In this document: positions 8,526-61,400 of the stretch, one piece after another
Layout: every line of letters starts with the position of its first letter
Position numbering within the stretch: position 1 is the stretch's first letter
Virus record (IMG/VR): IMGVR_UViG_3300018065_000011
Coordinates: 248,001-312,000 of that record
From: a virus
DNA length: 64,000 nt
Strand: one strand, 5' to 3'
Translations under genes and position numbers: made by a program
Notes under the pieces: model-generated
Databases searched by the model: none
What the model was told of the DNA's origin: nothing
Seen by the model: only the letters and a program-made list of their open reading frames with translations

Positions 8526-9209
8526 ATGCCTGATCAGCGTGTTTACGTCGTCATGCAGCGAACGGACATTCCCGACGCGCTTCTTCAGTTGACGGAATTG
8601 AAGCCGAACGACTCGCAGCGAAACTACATCTACGAGACGCCGGGGCAGACGCAATACGTCAAGAACATTCCGGCGAATGATACGGTCGCAACCACAGGCT
8701 TGGGACCGATCACGACCAACGTGGACTACAACGGTCTCGGTGCGTATCTCATCGATCGTGTTGAAGATCAGGCCGGTGGTACGCCTGCTCTCACGGCGGC
8801 CATCACCAACACGGCTTCGGCGGCAATCATTGCACTTGCCCAGGCTGGGACCGCCTGCGATGCAGTGGCCGTTGCTGCTGAGCTAGTCGCTGCGGGTGCT
8901 GCTGGTGGAACCACTCTCACGGCTGGCAACTCGACGGGCGACATCGAGGACGTGCTCGGTATCTTGGCGGGTCGCGTCTATCTCCTACCTGGCGGGTCGC
9001 AAGTCGAGGACGGAGCCAATGCCTTCGATCCGACGATTCGGGGATCGTTCACGAACAACGACGCGATCAACCAGTTGTACGAGACGGGTGACTTCAAGAT
9101 CTCCAACGGCATTGGACAGATTGCCGACTTCAAGGCGGCGACATTCGAGTATCTCGGTGTCCTCGGTTCCGCCATCACTGTTTACGCTCAAGACGGGAGC
9201 TTGTTGTAG
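8526..9209 (+). CDS. Tandem paralogous virion protein, copy 1
   Basis: 227 residues, ATG behind AGAGGAA. The N-terminus (MQRTDIPDALLQLTELKPNDSQRN followed by YETPGQTQYV) aligns with copies 2 and 3 at 9247 and 9925, and the end (FEYLGVLG...YAQDGSLL) aligns with theirs. The middle is Ala- and Thr-rich with a predicted loop region. It is the first gene after a candidate promoter, so it is likely well expressed. Three consecutive copies suggest subunits of a hetero-oligomeric virion structure, such as decoration or tail. The precise role is not known. Confidence 0.85.
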   Translation: MPDQRVYVVMQRTDIPDALLQLTELKPNDSQRNYIYETPGQTQYVKNIPANDTVATTGLGPITTNVDYNGLGAYLIDRVEDQAGGTPALTAAITNTASAAIIALAQAGTACDAVAVAAELVAAGAAGGTTLTAGNSTGDIEDVLGILAGRVYLLPGGSQVEDGANAFDPTIRGSFTNNDAINQLYETGDFKISNGIGQIADFKAATFEYLGVLGSAITVYAQDGSLL

Positions 9210-9246
9210 AGAATCACACGCTCTTATATGGGGCGGTAGGAGAACC

Positions 9247-9915
9247 ATGCCACACATCATCATGAAGCGGAGTGACATCCCCGCAGGAACGCTCCAAGTA
9301 CTGGATCTCTTCCCCAACGAGAGCCAGAGAAACCTCATCTACGACGCGCCCGGCCAGACAAAGTATGTCGATCCGGTAGTCCGAGCCCTTCCGGCGGTGC
9401 AGAACGTTGCTGGCGTGATCACCACCATTGCGGAGGTCTCCGGTCTGGAGGCGTGGTTCCTTGCCAACGTCGCTGACGGTGGTGGTGCCAGCCTGACTCC
9501 GGCTGAGTGCGTCCAGAATGCGACGGACGTTCTGGGGCTTCTCCAGTTTGGGAATCTCGCAGCCGCAGCCGGTGCCCTGACTCTGGTAGCCATCAACGGT
9601 GCGCTCACCACGGGTGCCCTGGCGGCTGGTCAGCTTCAGGCCATCTTGGACGTTCTGGCAGGCCAGACGTTCACGATTCCGCGAGGCGTGCAGGTCGAGG
9701 CGGCTGGTGCTCTGAATGTCCAGCCTGCGATCGGTGCCGCTGGCGGTCCGTTCTATGGAGAGATCCGGCGGATCTACGACACTTCGGCGCTCACGCTTTC
9801 GGTGAACACCGGAGAGCTTCTTGGTTTCCTCGACACCGGATTCGAGTACCAGGGAGTCGGCGGAGCGAACGGTCAAGCTGTCGCCGTCTACAATGACGAC
9901 GGCACTCTCTTCTAG
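9247..9915 (+). CDS. Tandem paralogous virion protein, copy 2
   Basis: 222 residues. The ATG at 9247 follows GGTAGGAG; earlier in-frame codons overlap copy 1 in a poor reading frame. It opens MPHIIMKRSDIPAGTLQVLD and contains the SQRNLIYDAPGQTKYV block, the NGALTTGALAAGQLQ segment shared with copy 3, and a closing VAVYNDDGTLF. It lacks the insertion found in copy 3. A TATATG at 9224-9229 in the gap before it could be a weak promoter element. Confidence 0.88.
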   Translation: MPHIIMKRSDIPAGTLQVLDLFPNESQRNLIYDAPGQTKYVDPVVRALPAVQNVAGVITTIAEVSGLEAWFLANVADGGGASLTPAECVQNATDVLGLLQFGNLAAAAGALTLVAINGALTTGALAAGQLQAILDVLAGQTFTIPRGVQVEAAGALNVQPAIGAAGGPFYGEIRRIYDTSALTLSVNTGELLGFLDTGFEYQGVGGANGQAVAVYNDDGTLF

Positions 9916-9924
9916 GGAGGGGCC

Positions 9925-11007
9925 ATGCCCTACATCATCCTGAAGCGGAGTGACATCCCGGCGGGAGCGCTCCAGGCGTTGGATCTCAAGCCAAACGTCT
10001 CCCAGCGGAATCAGATCTACGAGACGCCAGGTCAGTCGAAGTACGTCGATCCGCCCCAAAACGATGCACTCACGCTGGTAGGTGCTGGTCCCATCAATGT
10101 CCAGGGAGATACGCGCGGGTTGGCTGCGTGGTTTGTCACCAACGTCAACGACGGAACGGGTGCGGCTGCGACAGGTGTTCTGACTCCGGCGCTCACGCCT
10201 TTGACCGCGCCAGGGGTTCCGTATTTCTCGGTTGGTGGTGTGGCGTTTGTGGCGACTCCGGGTCCTATTCCCCCTGGAATACCGGGGGTGTTTGACTCCA
10301 CGCTTCCACTCGGGCCCGGACCCGGCACGATGAGCGATGACATCGCCAATCGTATCAATGATCCGGTCAATGGCCTGAATGCTCTCGTCATCGCCGCCGC
10401 AGATATCCCTGCGCCTGGCGATGTCTTGGTTCAAGCGCTCGCGGTTGGGACCGCCGGCAACACCATCGATTTCACTGATTTCTCGGCGGTAGGCCCTCCG
10501 CCTCCTCCGGGCGAGATCGTGATGGTTCCTCCAACACCACCAGGAACCCTTGCGGGTGGTGCCGATGCCGATTCGCTCACAGCGGCAGAAGCCATGCAGG
10601 ACGCCACGGACGTTCTGACTCTCCTGCGGTACGGCGATCTCGCGAACCCTGCCGGTGCTTTGGATCTTGCTTCGATCAACGGCGCTCTCACGACAGGACA
10701 GATCACCGCAGGCCAGCTACCGGATGTTCTCGACATCCTCGCTGGACGGGAATTCTTCGTTCCCAACGGCGTGCAAGTCGACCTGGATGGAACAACCTTC
10801 CAAGTACTGCCCCCAGTCGGCAGCGCAAATGGTCCCCGGTTCATCACCGGAACCCTGCGAGACATCTACGACACGTCGTCCCTGACGCTCTCTGTGAACA
10901 ATGGCAAGCTCGCAGGCTTCCTGCGCAACGACTTTGAGTACCTCGGTGCCGGAGGAACAAACGGCGAAGCCATCGCCGTCTACAACGATGACGGCACGCT
11001 CTACTAG
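9925..11007 (+). CDS. Tandem paralogous virion protein, copy 3, with inserted domain
   Basis: 360 residues, ATG behind GGAGGGG. Both ends align closely with copy 2 (MPYIILKRSDIPAGALQALD and VYNDDGTLY). Residues 80-215 are an insertion of about 130 residues, absent from copies 1 and 2, with strands, an IANRIN helix, a GTAGNTI motif and a closing LAGG. The same pattern (IAIAIQ, GTLGNRV, LAGG) appears inside the giant sheath at 37464, so a mobile beta domain has probably been inserted into both. The gene ends at a TAG that also begins a weak promoter-like sequence. Confidence 0.88.
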   Translation: MPYIILKRSDIPAGALQALDLKPNVSQRNQIYETPGQSKYVDPPQNDALTLVGAGPINVQGDTRGLAAWFVTNVNDGTGAAATGVLTPALTPLTAPGVPYFSVGGVAFVATPGPIPPGIPGVFDSTLPLGPGPGTMSDDIANRINDPVNGLNALVIAAADIPAPGDVLVQALAVGTAGNTIDFTDFSAVGPPPPPGEIVMVPPTPPGTLAGGADADSLTAAEAMQDATDVLTLLRYGDLANPAGALDLASINGALTTGQITAGQLPDVLDILAGREFFVPNGVQVDLDGTTFQVLPPVGSANGPRFITGTLRDIYDTSSLTLSVNNGKLAGFLRNDFEYLGAGGTNGEAIAVYNDDGTLY

Positions 11008-11023: not shown

Positions 11024-11430
11024 CGCACCCGCAAGGGTTGCGAACTGTTGCCGCCAAATCCCAGTAAACCTAAGCATTCCTGAGAGAACCAACCACCCGT
11101 TTCCATGCTAAACCAACAGGAGGGGAACCGATTTCGTCTGCCGTTCATGCGGCAGACGTTCTCACGCCGACGTGGCGGGAGGGATCAACCTGCTGAGACG
11201 TTCTCAGGACGAACAGGTTGACCTCAACGATCACCATCGAGACGTGAGGGAGTTGCTGCGAAGGCGATTCCGAGATTTCCGAAGGGGATCGAGGACCAGT
11301 TCCGCAGGACTTTTAACGAACGCGCCTGTACCGTTAGGCCGGAGGTTTACTACCGGGGTATCGCCGCCAAGGCGGGACCGGCACAGCCTCGAATCCGATG
11401 CTTACCTTTGAGTAGGTTTCGGAGTACGGT
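11024..11430 (+). ncRNA. Candidate structured non-coding RNA of about 400 bases
   Basis: No convincing gene occupies 11008-11451. Four clear stem-loops are visible: a GNRA-capped hairpin at 11024-11042 (CGCACCC, loop GCAA); a perfect 9-base stem at 11135-11143/11150-11158; a nested pair in which CAACCTG (11186-11192) pairs with CAGGTTG (11214-11220) around an inner CTGAGA/TCTCAG stem; and CCTCA/TGAGG from 11222 around an inner CGAT/ATCG stem. A short open frame at 11172-11411 runs through these stems and has no ribosome site. This could be a free RNA or an unusually long leader of the gene at 11452. It was not matched to any known RNA class. Confidence 0.5.
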
Positions 11431-11451
11431 GGAACATCAGATAGGACCCAG

Positions 11452-11724
11452 ATGCAGACGAATACGCAGACCGAAATCAAGGACTACGCCACGGCAGATC
11501 TCTACTTTGCAGCGTTCTTGATCGTTGCAGGCGTCCCAATCAAGGAGCTAGTCAAGAGCAACGAAGAGCGGCGAGTGTTCTTCCACTTCAAAGACGAAGG
11601 ACAGATCGATGACCTGAAGGTTGGATACTACCAACGTCGTGTGAAGATCGAAGCACTCCCGTTCACGCAAGAGATCAAGAACCTCAAGAACCAGACCCAT
11701 GAGATCATGAAAGGCGCGAGATGA
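11452..11724 (+). CDS. DUF5659-like small phage protein
   Basis: 90 residues. The core YATADLYFAAFLIVAGV, followed by RRVFFHFKDE and a final helix (IKNLKNQTHEIM), resembles the DUF5659 family of small phage proteins: T-x-D-L-Y-x-A-A-x-L, then R-V-x-F-x-F. The function of that family is unknown. The ATG lies in ACCCAGATG, a sequence also seen before mini-ORFs in the leaders at 37.2 and 51.1 kb, and has no strong Shine-Dalgarno. The stop overlaps the next ATG. Confidence 0.8.
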   Translation: MQTNTQTEIKDYATADLYFAAFLIVAGVPIKELVKSNEERRVFFHFKDEGQIDDLKVGYYQRRVKIEALPFTQEIKNLKNQTHEIMKGAR

Positions 11725-12491: not shown

Positions 12492-13658
12492 TTGGCCGGT
12501 GGCGCAAAGCCATGGAGTAGCGAAGACGATAGGCGGTTACGTGTGCTCTATGCCACGCTTTCGGCAGTGGAAGTTGCTAGGCAATTGGGGCGCTCGGTGG
12601 CGGCAATCCGCCACCGAGCCCACAAGATTGGTTGTACCAAGACGATATGGAATCGGAACCTTTCGGAGTTGGTTCGCGGACGTGCGCGAGATTTGTACGC
12701 TCGGGGTTTGACAATGGAAGAGATCCAAGAGCGGGAGGCTCTTTCCTATCATCAGGTCCGTTGGTGTCTTGGAAGAGGGAGAGCTACAAAAGACATTCCT
12801 CCAGGGTCCAAGGCGTTGGCGGCTCAGATTACCGGCTCAGAGCGACAAGAGATCATAGCCAAGGCCACTACAGGGCTACAGTCTTTGGATGATGTGGCGA
12901 AAGAACACGGCTATAATCGTTATCAGATTCGATGTGTTTTGAGGGAGGAAGGTGTGGATGTTCGGCGATGGTGGCGAGAGAAAGCAAGGAAGGTCTCTAA
13001 AACCAGGCCATTGCCGTGGACGCCTACGTCTCGTATTACGTTTTCTCCTTCTGTGGTAGCGGAGATTGTTCGCGACTTCACTGTTGGAATGCAAACGCAG
13101 AGAGAGATTGCGAAAAGACTAGGATGCGGATGGAAAGTTGTTTCTAGAGCACTTCGGGAAGCTGGGGTAGATAAGCGTTTTTGGGCGGTGAAGAAGGCGC
13201 AGAGGACACAGGCGGTTCTGCGAAGCCAAGGCAAGATCAGTTTGTCGCCAAGGGCAGGGCGTGGCCGTAGAACATACTACAAGACGCCTTTTCAGGGTGT
13301 TGTTTGCATGAGAAGTAGTACGGAAGCAGCCCGAGCGCGTGAACTGGATGCGTCAGGTGTTGCATGGTTTTATGAGGTTCGGGGGTTTGGGCTTTCAGAA
13401 GGGGTGTATACGCCGGACTTCTGGATAGCCGAGGTCTCTCGCGAAGAAGCGGAGAAGGTGCTTGGTGTTTGTCCAGATCGAGAATGCATCAGGAGATTTT
13501 TGTGCAAGACTCGTCATGTGGTTGAGGATGTGAAGGGATGGTTTAATGAGAAGCATCCTTCTAGAAAGAAGATTGCCAAGTTTCGAGCGGAATATCCTTT
13601 AGAGGACTTCCGTATTTTGGTTATTGATCGTAATGGTCGGCAGGAGATTCGGCTATGA
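12492..13658 (+). CDS. Free-standing homing-endonuclease-like protein, PD-(D/E)XK type
   Basis: 388 residues, TTG start behind AAGGAG (12482-12486). The N-terminal 240 residues hold several helix-turn-helix-like segments, the first SANT/Myb-like (WSSEDDRRLRVLYATLSAVE). From residue 259 a nuclease-like domain appears: YYKTPFQGVVCMRSSTEAA with E278, YTPDF with D309, then VVEDVKGW with D346 and K348, matching the E, PD and (D/E)xK arrangement of PD-(D/E)XK enzymes. Many codons end in T, unlike neighbouring genes, suggesting recent arrival. The last bases overlap the ATG at 13655. It likely cuts and copies itself into the intact gene junction of related phages; the target is not known. Confidence 0.7.
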   Translation: MAGGAKPWSSEDDRRLRVLYATLSAVEVARQLGRSVAAIRHRAHKIGCTKTIWNRNLSELVRGRARDLYARGLTMEEIQEREALSYHQVRWCLGRGRATKDIPPGSKALAAQITGSERQEIIAKATTGLQSLDDVAKEHGYNRYQIRCVLREEGVDVRRWWREKARKVSKTRPLPWTPTSRITFSPSVVAEIVRDFTVGMQTQREIAKRLGCGWKVVSRALREAGVDKRFWAVKKAQRTQAVLRSQGKISLSPRAGRGRRTYYKTPFQGVVCMRSSTEAARARELDASGVAWFYEVRGFGLSEGVYTPDFWIAEVSREEAEKVLGVCPDRECIRRFLCKTRHVVEDVKGWFNEKHPSRKKIAKFRAEYPLEDFRILVIDRNGRQEIRL

Positions 13659-14643: not shown

Positions 14644-16815
14644 ATGCCAGGGAAAAGCGGTGTTGGTAGTTGTCCCGCGTGTGGTGCTCCCGTAGCGCCT
14701 AGGAAAATTGGAGAGCATAGCGAGACGTGTTTAGCGTGGAAGGCTATGTTTGGGGCGCCTCTTCCTCGCTTCAAATACGATCCGTCTAGCAAAAAAGAGC
14801 TTTTTGCTGAAACGGCCGTTGAGGGAGTTGATTACCTTCGGTGCCAGGAGTGTTGGGGTTTTGGGTTAGATTTTCGATTCAGTCGCCTGGCTCAGCATCT
14901 AAAGGTTCATGGGTTGGATGAAGCGTCGTACAAGGCTAAATACCCTGGTTACGACATCCGCCTTGAGAAAACGGCAGAACGTCGGAAGGAGACAACGCAG
15001 CAGAGGTATGGCGTCGATAATGTCTTTCAGGCCGAGTCCGTAAAGACCAAATCGCGGGCGACGGTTCAGAGAAGATACGGGGTAACGCACATTGCACAGT
15101 CTTCTGAGTTTCAAACACGGAGAGCAGCTACGAACCTAGAGCGCTATGGCGTTTCCAATCTCTTTGCTTCAGCCGATGTTCAGGCCAAAATTCGGCAGAC
15201 AATGGAAGCGAAATATGGTGCTGCTCATGCGCAACAAGTACCTGAGATTCGTGCGCGGACGGAACAGACAACCTTGAAGCGCTACGGGGCTGCGTCAGCG
15301 CTTCACACGGCTCTTCGGTACGAAGAGCTTGCTAAACAACGAAAATGTCGGAAGCGAGAACGCCGTGAGCGTTTGATTGCCTCAGGGCAGCACGAGACTT
15401 GTCCGTTTTGTGATGGGGTTTTTCGCAAGATCACTAGCCGTCATAAGACTGTTTGTGAGGGATGGGTTGATGTGGCGTTTCCTGAGCCGTGCCTCTGCGG
15501 GCATGAATCGACATCGCTGACTCAGATGAAGAGGCATCGCCGCACCTGTGAGGTGTGGCAGAGCCGGGATTCGAGGGCCACGGCCCAAGCACGTCTTGAG
15601 AGCACGTTGGAGGACCGCTACGGACCTGGCGTCACCAACCCACGTCATGTGCCAGGAGCGGAGGAGAGACTCCGTGCAACGAACCTGGAGCGCTACGGGG
15701 CTGAGAATCCTTTTGCCCGCGAAGCCTCGACGTTTGAGAAGGTGCAGTCGAGCTTGGAGGGTAAGCGGTTTGTCTGGGCTCCCGAGGACAACCCTTTCTC
15801 CAAGCCCGAGACACAGGTGATCATTCGCAAACGGATGAAGGAGAAGTACGGAGCCGAGAGCCCGCAACAGGTTCCTGAGATCCGTGCTCGTACCCGAGCA
15901 ACGAATCTGGAGCGCTATGGTCATGAGGAACCCTTGGCCGCACCGGTTATTCGCAAGCGAATTGAAGTCACGAACATGAAGCGATATGGCGGACCTGCGC
16001 CATCGTGTTCGCCGGAGGTTGTTGGGAAGGCTCGTCAGACCAACCTGGAGCGGTGGGGTGTTCCTTGGACAGCGATGCATCCTGATGTTCGGCGCAAACA
16101 GCTTGAGGCGATGGAGGCCAGATGGGGTTCGCATTTCTTTGCGTCGGAGGAAGGTAAGGAGCAAGTGCGCAGAGGAATGCTTGCAAAATACGGGGTTGAG
16201 CACGCTCTGTTGTTGGGAGAGTTTAAAGACAAACGAGCGCGGACTTACTTAGAACGGTGGGGAGGAACGGGCACTTTTGCCTCTCTGTTCCAGATGGAAC
16301 GAGTCATCCGCACATGTCTTGCCAAGGTCGGTGTGGCGTTTTCCGAGTACGACACTCCTGCGCAGTCCGAGCAAGATCTCAAAGATCGCTACGGCGTCAC
16401 ACATCCGATGCAGCACAAAGATTACGCGAGATTGCATCTAGAGGCGATGGCTGAGCCGTCGCGAGAGCCGAATGGCTTAGAGCGCAGGGTTCAAGCTCTT
16501 GCTCCGCAGCTTCTCTTTACAGGCAATCGGACATTCTGGCGGTGGTTGCCCAAGCTCAGTCACCACAAGAACCCGGATTTCATCGAGCCGGGTCCTGATC
16601 CTGAGCATCCCAAGCGTGGTGTGAGGCGTGTGGTTGAAGCCTTTGGGGACTTCTGGCACTCTCGAATGTTCACTGGGAAGGCACCATTCGATCACGAAAC
16701 TGAGCTAGTCCAAGCCTACGCCGAGATCGGGATTGACTGTTTGGTGGTGTGGGAATCCGAGGTCAAGGCTGATCGCGGGGCCGTGAGGGCCAAGATAGCT
16801 GCATTTCTGGGGTAG
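14644..16815 (+). CDS. Repeat-rich homing-endonuclease-like protein, Vsr/EDxHD type
   Basis: 723 residues. Order of parts: C2HC finger (CPACGAPVAPRKIGEHSETC); a MucR/Ros-like finger ending LAQHLKVHGLDEASYKAKYP (about 60-100); a block of about five repeats of roughly 24 residues built on T-N-L-E-R-Y-G-V; a double zinc cluster (CPFCDGVF...C and CLCGHE...C, about 255-305); about ten further repeats; and a C-terminal nuclease domain (about 605-723) with NGLERRV, KNPDFIEPG, VVEAFGDFWHS and CLVVWESE, the Vsr-like pattern of EDxHD homing endonucleases. The repeats are probably DNA-reading modules. The protein likely mobilises its own gene; its site is presumably near 14600. Confidence 0.75.
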   Translation: MPGKSGVGSCPACGAPVAPRKIGEHSETCLAWKAMFGAPLPRFKYDPSSKKELFAETAVEGVDYLRCQECWGFGLDFRFSRLAQHLKVHGLDEASYKAKYPGYDIRLEKTAERRKETTQQRYGVDNVFQAESVKTKSRATVQRRYGVTHIAQSSEFQTRRAATNLERYGVSNLFASADVQAKIRQTMEAKYGAAHAQQVPEIRARTEQTTLKRYGAASALHTALRYEELAKQRKCRKRERRERLIASGQHETCPFCDGVFRKITSRHKTVCEGWVDVAFPEPCLCGHESTSLTQMKRHRRTCEVWQSRDSRATAQARLESTLEDRYGPGVTNPRHVPGAEERLRATNLERYGAENPFAREASTFEKVQSSLEGKRFVWAPEDNPFSKPETQVIIRKRMKEKYGAESPQQVPEIRARTRATNLERYGHEEPLAAPVIRKRIEVTNMKRYGGPAPSCSPEVVGKARQTNLERWGVPWTAMHPDVRRKQLEAMEARWGSHFFASEEGKEQVRRGMLAKYGVEHALLLGEFKDKRARTYLERWGGTGTFASLFQMERVIRTCLAKVGVAFSEYDTPAQSEQDLKDRYGVTHPMQHKDYARLHLEAMAEPSREPNGLERRVQALAPQLLFTGNRTFWRWLPKLSHHKNPDFIEPGPDPEHPKRGVRRVVEAFGDFWHSRMFTGKAPFDHETELVQAYAEIGIDCLVVWESEVKADRGAVRAKIAAFLG

Positions 16816-58427: not shown

Positions 58428-61400
58428 ATGCCTAATCTTCTCGATCGTCCTTATGCAGGCAACTTCCAGCCCAACGCACGTCGGGTTGTGAAGTACACGC
58501 CTGATGCGTTGGTCTACGTCAACGGGGATCTCTCTATCCCAGGTTGTCCCAAGTGCAATGGACGAATCAACATCCAGCGGTTCGTGAAATCGGTTTCGGT
58601 CGAGGCCGGGGTGCATGCGGGAGCGGCCAGCGGCTCGATTCAGCTTGCGGTTCCCGTCATCTGGGGGGACCAGCTATTTCGAGAAGGCCGGATGCTGCTT
58701 CAGCCTGGGTTGGAAGTCCATATTTACATGCGCGGCTATTTTCCGGTGCAGGGTCAGTTTGCACATCTGGATACGGCAGATGCCGTGGGGCAGACGGGGC
58801 TGAATCAGGGAAACTTCGATAATTTCCCGACCTACCCCTACTACCATGTGTTCCATGGCGTTGTTACGTCGGCGGATTACAGCTACTCGGATGGTTTCTA
58901 TTCGGCATCACTCCAACTCGCGTCGATGTTGCACTTTTGGCAATTCCACAACATTGCCACGAACGCTGCGTTGGTGGCCGTCAAGCCAGATGGTACGAGA
59001 GCGCAGCCAAACATCTGGGGGAACATTTACACCAACATGCACCCCTATGCGATTATCTACGATCTCTATCGGTCGATAATCGGAGCACCGGGAGGCATCG
59101 AGGGGATAGCCCGTCTTGACACATACAGGACCAACCTCAACGCAACAATCACGACTAGAGACGGCCAGGATCGCTTGATCTACTCGATGATGCAGTTGTA
59201 TTGGGAGGAGCGGTTTCGTACGTCGATTCAAAGCCTGCGCATGTATGGGGTGAACGGGAAGCTATACAACGCAGTGCAGCAGGCGTACATCGGACGGCGA
59301 AACAGCACCAAGCTCAACAAGTTACTGCAACACAACCAGCATCTCGATCTCGATGCGCAGTCGAATGCGAAGGATCCCTTCTCTCGGAGCTTCGCAGTCG
59401 CCAAGGCTATTGGTCTTGAGGGAGCGGGTCTGGATGTCACATTTGCCCCGAGCATGGGGACAGAAGGAGCGTCAGACGAGAAGGAACCGCTCGACTTTAA
59501 CATGACTTCGATCTTTGCGTTCACCTTATCGCCAGGATCGGCCAATCTCAACGTTTTCAACACGTCGTACATGCCCAAGCTCACCATCGCCCAACAGGTT
59601 TGTGAGGCGACGGGTTTCGAGTTTTACCAGGACGTGGACGGCGACTTGGTGTTCAAGCCGCCCTTCTACAACCTGGACACGCGATCGAGTCGGGTCTATC
59701 GGTTGGAGGACATCGACATCATCAGCTTCTCTGTTCAGGAGAAGGAACCGCAGGCTACCTACTGCACCGTGAAGTCCGGGTTGATCAACAGCTTGAACAC
59801 GGGTAGCGATCCGTCTGTTGGAAACAGAGGTACGTTTATCGATTGGCGGCTCGTCTGCAAGTACGGATGGCGTCCCGCTGACATGGAGATCACGTATTTC
59901 TCTAATCCCAAGTCATTGTTCTTCGTTGCGCAGCATCGGCTGGATATTCTCAACATCGACATTCACTCAGCGCAAGTGACCATTCCTTTGCGTCCCGAGA
60001 TGCGGCCGGGGTATCCAGTCTACATCCCATCGCTGGATTGCTTCTACTACATCACGGCACTGAGCCACCAGTTTTCGTTCGGCAGCGCGTGCCAAACATC
60101 GCTGACGTTGACGGCACGGAGGGCGAAGGTCTTTGCTCCCGGCCTTCCAGGGCCGCTGCAAGAGGGTGAAAACGCCATCGATCGGATCAAGTTGGATGAG
60201 CCGTGGCTGCCCGAGCGTCCTCTGGAGATCATGGACAATGGCATACCGCGTTGGGCTGGGTTTCCCAATCTGGTCATGGCGCTGGATCCTCTCAAGCTCA
60301 ACCCCAAGCAGTTTGCGTTGCGGGCAGGGTTGGAGGATCTGGGGACTGAGATTCTGGGCGAGGGCAAGGTCGAGTTGCTTTTCAACATCATCAATCAGCA
60401 AGTCAAGACGACAGGCGAGGGAGCGGGGGTTTTTGCCTTGGCTGCTCCGCGAGAGGATGATGCTTCATCGCCCACCGAGCACACACGGTATGTGTTGCGT
60501 CGTTCCGGCAACCCCGAGGATGACATCGAGTTTTCGCTGGCCGAATTGCGTGAGGACTACGCTTCTTTCGACGCTGCTCGGACAGAGATTCAGAAACGAC
60601 GGGGACAGGTCGCACGTCTGCGGGATGACCTGCGCCTGACGGCGAGCGGCGGCGAGCCAGGGCTTGCTCAGGAAGGGACTCTCTCACGAAGAACGGGCGG
60701 GGCTGACGCGATAGAAGCCCGGTTGAACGAAGCGACTGCCTCCCTGCGCCGCGCCACGGAGTTGTTCGCCACGGGCGTGACTGACTTCTCGGCCAATGGC
60801 GACAAGACCATCAATTCACTGGTTTTGATTGTCCAGTCTCTTCAGAACAACGATGTGATACGGCGCTCGTTTGGCGGGATGCCAGACGCGTCAACAACGA
60901 TGACATGGCTGGACATCATAGCGGACACCAAGGCCAACATGAATCCCGGCATGTCGTTGCCTGGCTACTATCGGTTCTACTCTGCTTCTCATCCTAGTCC
61001 CGAGATGCAGGGCCAGGCGACCCTGACTTTCACGGAAGGGTCAGCAGATGACTTGTTTGTGTATCAGGATGAGACGTTGTCCGAGCCTGCCGAGACTTCG
61101 GGCGGAGAGGTAAAAAAACCTGTTGAGCCCGAGCCCGCGCCTCCCGAGGAAGTCCCTGATGATCTCAAGGTTACGGAGGATGGCCGCGTAAGGCGAAAGC
61201 AACCTGGAAGCCATATCGGTTGGTTTGACGACTACACGAGAGGAAAAGCGGGCAAGCAGGAATTCGAGGATGTGGCACGACGGGCGCAAGCTCTTGGTGT
61301 TCCAGAGTCCTACATTCGCTACATGCGTGTCCAGGTAGCGCGCGAGACAGGCAACACTTGGAACACGGGGGTGGTTGCGCTCAGGTCAGGAGGCACGGCG

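What the first reader, a model, noticed from the sequence alone, without database searches (positions are those of the whole stretch)
11024..11430. Possible large structured RNA between structural genes
A 440-base gap in a very compact genome contains a GNRA hairpin, a perfect 9-base stem and two nested double hairpins, with no credible gene. It follows a weak promoter-like sequence (TAG, then CATAGG) and does not look like a tRNA, tmRNA or group I intron.
Basis: partly seen in the sequence, partly recalled or inferred. Interest (0 to 1): 0.7.

Follow-up and report, generated by a model that had tools for sequence, protein, structure and literature searches.

The report
Nuclease-less mini-transposon carrying TnpB guide RNA
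The gap holds a shrunken IS607-type jumping gene in a giant phage that has lost its TnpB nuclease gene but kept both ends and a complete, well-paired TnpB guide RNA, so it may steer the intact TnpB encoded elsewhere in the same phage to its own insertion site.

Summary
The structured RNA is real, but it is not an orphan phage RNA. Window 11035-11429 is an internally deleted IS607-type element of about 395 bp. Its left end (11035-11113) is 96% identical to that of a full tnpB element in a sister phage; it is joined to the last 96 codons (stop included) of tnpB and the right end, 85% identical to two full copies. The RNA (11185-11430) is the TnpB guide RNA (omegaRNA/reRNA). In 19 homologues 38 of 55 pairs show compensatory change and 94% of cells pair (shuffled 79%, slid registers at most 50%); the window copy keeps 53/55 pairs. 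The 79-codon frame is the vestigial TnpB tail. Rfam has no matching family. The same genome holds an intact tnpA+tnpB element. Similar ~350-395-bp elements without tnpB occur in other large phages; in one clade they sit at four unrelated flanks and share protein-breaking but RNA-preserving changes. Best reading: a non-autonomous mini-transposon whose guide (11431-11450) would direct the phage's TnpB in trans to its own empty site at the start of the next gene. Identity is near certain. Function in trans is inferred; an inert relic is the main rival.

The parts
11035..11429 (+). whole mini-element (about 395 bp), left GGG to right-end ACGG
   Evidence: left end 96% and right end 85% identical to full-length elements; ends shared by relatives
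11035..11113 (+). left end (LE), leader of tnpB in the full copy
   Evidence: 76 of 79 nt identical to the LE of the tnpB-only copy in sister phage G001 (L039); first 15-16 nt shared with the LE of the tnpA+tnpB copy
11114..11123 (+). deletion junction (CAACAGGAGG)
   Evidence: about 1.2 kb of tnpB present in full copies is missing here
   Evidence: in frame with full TnpB, stop codon TAA just upstream in the LE, no ATG/GTG/TTG before 11172
11185..11430 (+). omegaRNA (reRNA) scaffold including the fixed right-flank T
   Evidence: 55-pair consensus, 38 with compensatory change, window copy keeps 53; CM hit 110 bits, E 3e-27 (the window copy is itself in the model)
11185..11221 (+). nested hairpin: outer stem 11185-11192/11214-11221, inner stem 11194-11198/11202-11206
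   Evidence: 10 of 13 pairs with changes on both sides
11250..11313 (+). long stem 11250-11264/11300-11313 with variable tip
   Evidence: 9 of 13 pairs with changes on both sides
11324..11339 (+). hairpin GCCT-ACCG-AGGC
11342..11390 (+). three-part stem 11342-11347/11385-11390, 11353-11356/11378-11381, 11361-11365/11371-11375
   Evidence: 11 of 15 pairs with changes on both sides
11394..11423 (+). subterminal right-end hairpin, outer 11394-11398/11419-11423, inner 11400-11404/11413-11417
   Evidence: a subterminal hairpin near the 3' end of the scaffold is the common feature of TnpB omegaRNAs (PMC10278001)
11431..11450 (+). predicted guide (GGAACATCAGATAGGACCCA), running to the start codon of the next gene at 11452
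   Evidence: position by analogy with IS607 TnpB (PMC10711439); sequence outside the element, unrelated between copies
11035..11037 (+). GGG: predicted TAM of the empty site
   Evidence: GGG precedes all 14 left ends examined; ISXfa1 TAM is GGG (PMC10711439)
9925..11007 (+). upstream gene, one of three tandem paralogues; neighbour only
11452..11724 (+). downstream DUF5659 gene; neighbour whose start lies next to the guide

Best explanation
The region is a non-autonomous miniature IS607-type element (about 395 bp) that arose by an internal deletion of tnpB and kept the left end, the right end and the whole omegaRNA. Shown here: its identity, its ends, the conserved RNA fold, and an intact tnpA+tnpB element in the same genome. 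Inferred: the element is moved by TnpA supplied in trans; it is transcribed through its right end; the TnpB of the intact copy binds this omegaRNA in trans; and the adjoining 20 nt (11431-11450) guide cleavage of phage genomes that lack the insertion at this site (TAM GGG, right-flank T). Repair from the element-bearing genome would copy the element in, so that a nuclease-less cassette homes during co-infection. Identity is about 0.96 likely; the function in trans about 0.5-0.6.
For: Second copy in the same genome is the 3' end of a complete tnpB beside a serine-recombinase tnpA. LE and RE of full copies both present at the right places. RNA covariation strong and the window copy as well paired as the full copies: 53, 51 and 50 of 55. 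Of 16 changes specific to the window copy, 3 fall in paired sites and none breaks a pair. RuvC D-E-D residues intact in the resident TnpB. Flank rules of IS607 TnpB met: GGG before LE in 14 of 14, T after RE in 20 of 23 (PMC10711439). tnpB-less copies with both ends recur in other large phages, in one clade at four unrelated left flanks with shared protein-breaking, RNA-preserving changes.
Against: No expression data; no recognisable promoter near the window copy. The exact empty site was not found in any record. All three records of this locus are one phage species, so purifying selection on the window copy cannot be measured. Some tnpB-less copies in other phages are plainly decayed (L194, L197, L130, L169). 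The omegaRNA of the window copy differs by 15% from that of the resident TnpB, and cross-use was not tested.
Confidence: 0.6

Rival explanations
1. An inert relic: the element lost tnpB by deletion and is decaying; the RNA is intact only because the deletion is recent, and it is neither transcribed nor used.
For: Internal deletions of IS elements are common; decayed fragments of the same family exist in other phages; no promoter found; 16 copy-specific changes are too few to prove selection.
Against: Both ends and 53 of 55 pairs are intact although the copy differs by about 15% from its relatives; similar mini-elements in another phage clade have multiplied at four flanks, which a dead relic would not do.
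Confidence: 0.33
2. A domesticated regulator: the omegaRNA with a TnpB-like protein represses or tunes the structural gene next to it, in the manner of phage TldR guide RNAs.
For: The guide abuts the start codon of the next gene; TldR systems are phage-encoded RNA-guided repressors (PMC13418256, found).
Against: The resident TnpB keeps the RuvC D-E-D residues, unlike nuclease-dead TldR (the TldR feature is from general knowledge); the guide matches no other place in the genome at up to 3 mismatches, as expected for a plain insertion flank.
Confidence: 0.04
3. A small protein gene: the 79-codon frame at 11172 (or the 95-codon remnant) is translated into a TnpB C-terminal mini-protein.
For: Open frame; AGGAGG just upstream at 11118-11123; open frames of about 98 aa also in other tnpB-less copies.
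Against: No ATG/GTG/TTG near that ribosome-binding-like sequence; the first start (GTG 11172) comes after the RuvC-III aspartate; weak codon-position bias in the 3' part, where the third copy even changes frame; other tnpB-less copies break conserved residues while keeping RNA pairs.
Confidence: 0.03

Closest known systems
reRNA/omegaRNA of IS607-family TnpB, ISXfa1 type (PMC10711439)
   Same: RNA from the 3' end of tnpB and the transposon right end, GG/GGG flanks, fixed right-flank nucleotide, guide encoded outside the element
   Different: The window copy has no tnpB gene of its own; the sequence and fold form a family not in Rfam
RAGATH-18-derived reRNAs of IS607 TnpBs (PMC11061315)
   Same: IS607 TnpB guide RNAs with several stem-loops and a G-rich TAM (AGGAG or GAGGG)
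   Different: No Rfam RAGATH-18 match even at E 10; the TnpBs here are about 475 aa, against an average of 390
Bacterial MITEs: internally deleted, non-autonomous insertion sequences (PMC10969869)
   Same: Short, both ends kept, transposase gene lost, autonomous relative in the same genome
   Different: Keeps a complete guide RNA, so it could borrow the nuclease as well as the transposase; IS607 ends are not terminal inverted repeats
Standalone omegaRNAs of IscB (Altae-Tran et al. 2021, from memory; paper not held) and TldR guide RNAs of phages (PMC13418256)
   Same: Guide RNA loci used, or proposed to be used, apart from an adjacent active nuclease gene
   Different: IscB rather than TnpB, or a nuclease-dead TnpB regulator; not known to me as LE-omegaRNA-RE mobile units in huge phages
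GOLLD, ROOL and other large phage RNAs
   Same: Structured RNA in a large-phage genome
   Different: No Rfam match; origin from a tnpB right end is shown

Membership tests
TnpB omegaRNA/reRNA (IS607 type) | Derives from the 3' end of tnpB plus transposon right end | tested here: met
   85% identity to right ends of two complete tnpB genes, in frame
TnpB omegaRNA/reRNA (IS607 type) | Conserved secondary structure across TnpB relatives | tested here: met
   38 of 55 pairs with compensatory change; 0 of 500 shuffles reach it
TnpB omegaRNA/reRNA (IS607 type) | 3' end at the element boundary with guide from flanking DNA; GG/GGG flanks and fixed right-flank nucleotide | tested here: met
   GGG at 14 of 14 left ends, T at 20 of 23 right flanks, unrelated sequence beyond
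TnpB omegaRNA/reRNA (IS607 type) | Is transcribed, binds TnpB and guides cleavage | not testable with these tools
   needs RNA sequencing and a cleavage assay
Autonomous IS607 element | Encodes a serine-recombinase TnpA (and usually TnpB) | tested here: not met
   neither gene in 11035-11429; both in the copy at 52.5-55.6 kb of the record
Non-autonomous (MITE-like) derivative of IS607 | Both ends kept, genes lost, autonomous relative present | tested here: met
Non-autonomous (MITE-like) derivative of IS607 | The derivative itself has moved | tested here: inconclusive
   one locus only in this phage; in another phage clade the same kind sits at four flanks
RAGATH-18 RNA | Match to the Rfam covariance model | tested here: not met
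   cmscan at gathering score and at E up to 10
GOLLD / ROOL | Match to the Rfam covariance model | tested here: not met
tRNA, tmRNA, group I intron, HEARO | ARAGORN or Rfam match | tested here: not met

The most novel reading that the evidence does not exclude
Large phages carry a class of miniature IS607 elements that are only left end plus omegaRNA plus right end: mobile guide-RNA cassettes that gain a new guide at each insertion and exploit the phage's TnpA and TnpB in trans, giving several guides per nuclease and a nuclease-free gene drive among co-infecting phages.
Probability: 0.4. Interest if true: 0.8.

Novelty: new variant of a known kind. Interest (0 to 1): 0.6.

Why it matters
If the guide works in trans, it is a natural case of a TnpB guide RNA separated from its nuclease and kept as its own mobile unit, a step like those proposed on the way to CRISPR systems with many guides for one effector. 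It would also explain structured gaps in large-phage genomes, show how parasites of a homing system arise inside a phage, and supply an omegaRNA family, with a model, that Rfam lacks.

Tried and rejected
Rfam at gathering score and at E up to 10: nothing relevant. tRNA/tmRNA: none. Nucleotide searches of phages and plasmids: no real match. Empty-site search with left flank plus guide in viral contigs: none; the guide alone only in records of this phage. Promoter and terminator scan: none. RNA model on syntenic relatives and distant TnpB loci: no hit in 387 kb. Small-protein reading rejected on codon-position and frame-switch evidence. The flank swap between L133, L142 and G007 was examined as a possible empty site but is ambiguous. 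Paper searches for omegaRNA-bearing MITEs or standalone TnpB guides found no precedent in the held library, which lacks most subscription journals.

Full report
What is there. The window lies at 248001-312000 of a 372,162-base virus record. Between a presumed structural gene (9925-11007) and a DUF5659 gene (11452-11724) is a 444-base gap. A search of the record itself with the gap sequence found a second, 85% identical copy at 55.3 kb. That copy is the 3' end of a 475-aa TnpB gene downstream of a 248-aa MerR-plus-resolvase serine recombinase, i.e. an IS607-family element.

A sister record of the same phage (G001, 497,194 bases) carries the window copy unchanged, the tnpA+tnpB copy, and a third copy that has tnpB only. 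The leader of that third copy matches window 11035-11113 at 96% over 79 nt, and its right end matches from 11124 on at 85%. The window copy is therefore a left end fused, with 10 nt between, to the right end: about 1.2 kb of tnpB is gone. It starts after GCAAGGG and ends in TACGG, like its relatives.

Why it is an RNA. Homologous right ends were collected from TnpB loci 45-63% identical in protein in other viral contigs and one MAG. RNAalifold on 16 sequences gave 42 pairs, 27 with changes on both sides (28 by the count). With the outer stem of the nested hairpin, the subterminal inner hairpin and three tnpB-less copies added (19 sequences, 55 pairs), 94.4% of cells pair against 78.7% in shuffles, 38 pairs have compensatory change (0 of 500 shuffles reach this), and sliding the partner by one column drops pairing to 47-50%. 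The window copy keeps 53 of 55 pairs, the two full copies 51 and 50. Caution: the structure was derived from these sequences, which favours the unslid register somewhat. Thermodynamics alone are weaker: z -3.8 for the 441-nt gap, -1.8 for the conserved 240 nt.

Protein or RNA constraint. Upstream in tnpB the two full copies differ mainly at third codon positions (45/28/142). After the first 147 nt of the right-end part this bias is gone between them (4/7/7) and weak against the window copy (8/8/16). The third copy shifts reading frame there, yet the nucleotide sequence persists.

Copies without tnpB elsewhere. A covariance model of the 3' 108 nt (R1) and a TnpB profile were run on twelve phage records. 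Every full-length tnpB of this family had the RNA. RNA copies without a full tnpB were found in G003, G004, G006, G007, G009, G010, G011 and G012. In G003, G004, G007 and G011 the well-formed ones are a left end of about 60 nt carrying TTGACA-17-TAAAGT joined to the 3' part of tnpB at one point, at four different left flanks. They share LRRS to PRCS, and three of the four share HAD to YAD, while the hairpin CTCAGA-CGT-TCTGAG has become CCCAGA-TGT-TCTGGG (last base A in one) and still pairs. One G006 copy (L144) also shows a left end. Others are plainly decayed: L169 lacks the 3' RNA, L130 has no clear left end, and L193, L194 and L197 are truncated. So there are both well-formed mini-elements and relics.

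Mechanism. Characterised IS607 TnpBs belong to elements that recombine at GG; ISXfa1 shows TAM GGG and a fixed right-flank nucleotide that is part of the scaffold (PMC10711439). Others use AGGAG or GAGGG (PMC11061315). Here all 14 left ends examined follow GGG, right ends read ACGG, and 20 of 23 right flanks begin with T. The predicted empty site at the window locus is CGCAAGGG-T-GGAACATCAGATAGGACCC, with the guide running up to the start codon of the next gene. In the occupied site the right end reads CGG, not GGG, which would protect it (inference). TnpB can fix its element by cutting empty sites (PMC8612924, PMC11870625), and the phage encodes a TnpB with the RuvC residues intact. I infer that the window RNA can be used in trans; this was not tested. 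The syntenic gap of distant relatives is 123 nt (L032) and 245 nt (L018) and has no such RNA, so the element is a lineage-specific insertion. The exact empty allele was not found.

Rating. Identity as the omegaRNA and right end of an internally deleted IS607-type element is close to certain. Function is open between a mobile guide acting in trans and a relic. Novelty: a new variant of a known kind. I found no precedent in the held literature for LE-omegaRNA-RE mini-elements of TnpB, but standalone omegaRNAs of IscB are known to me from memory, and the library is incomplete.

Noticed in passing
L004:8647-9876 (record position about 58646-59875): A phage-encoded EF-Tu-like protein of 409 aa about 3 kb downstream of the intact IS607 copy, with several tRNA genes nearby.
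   Followed up: no
L004:3436-4163: The intact IS607 copy carries two extra ORFs (171 and 85 aa) between tnpA and tnpB; the 171-aa one has no NCBIfam match.
   Followed up: partly
G000:C1:97716-98348: A second, distant TnpB in the same phage genome (profile E 2e-21).
   Followed up: no
window 8526-11007: Three tandem paralogous genes (74-77% DNA identity in segments) upstream of the element; relatives keep such a run upstream of the DUF5659 gene.
   Followed up: partly
L133, L142, L167: Two phages share a mini-element and its left flank but differ in the right flank; a third joins another left sequence directly to one of those right flanks at a GG. Looks like recombination at the element end.
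   Followed up: partly
window 11438-11457 and L004:5612-5630: The right flanks of the window copy and the intact copy look alike (TAGGACCCAGATGC / TAGGACACAGAGGC), perhaps a site preference or a shared expression signal.
   Followed up: no
L050:555-815: A HEARO (IscB-type) RNA in the same phage region as a TnpB element of this family.
   Followed up: no
window 14644-16815 and 12492-13658: A 723-aa protein with four DUF7487 stretches and a 388-aa protein with only weak HTH matches just downstream.
   Followed up: no
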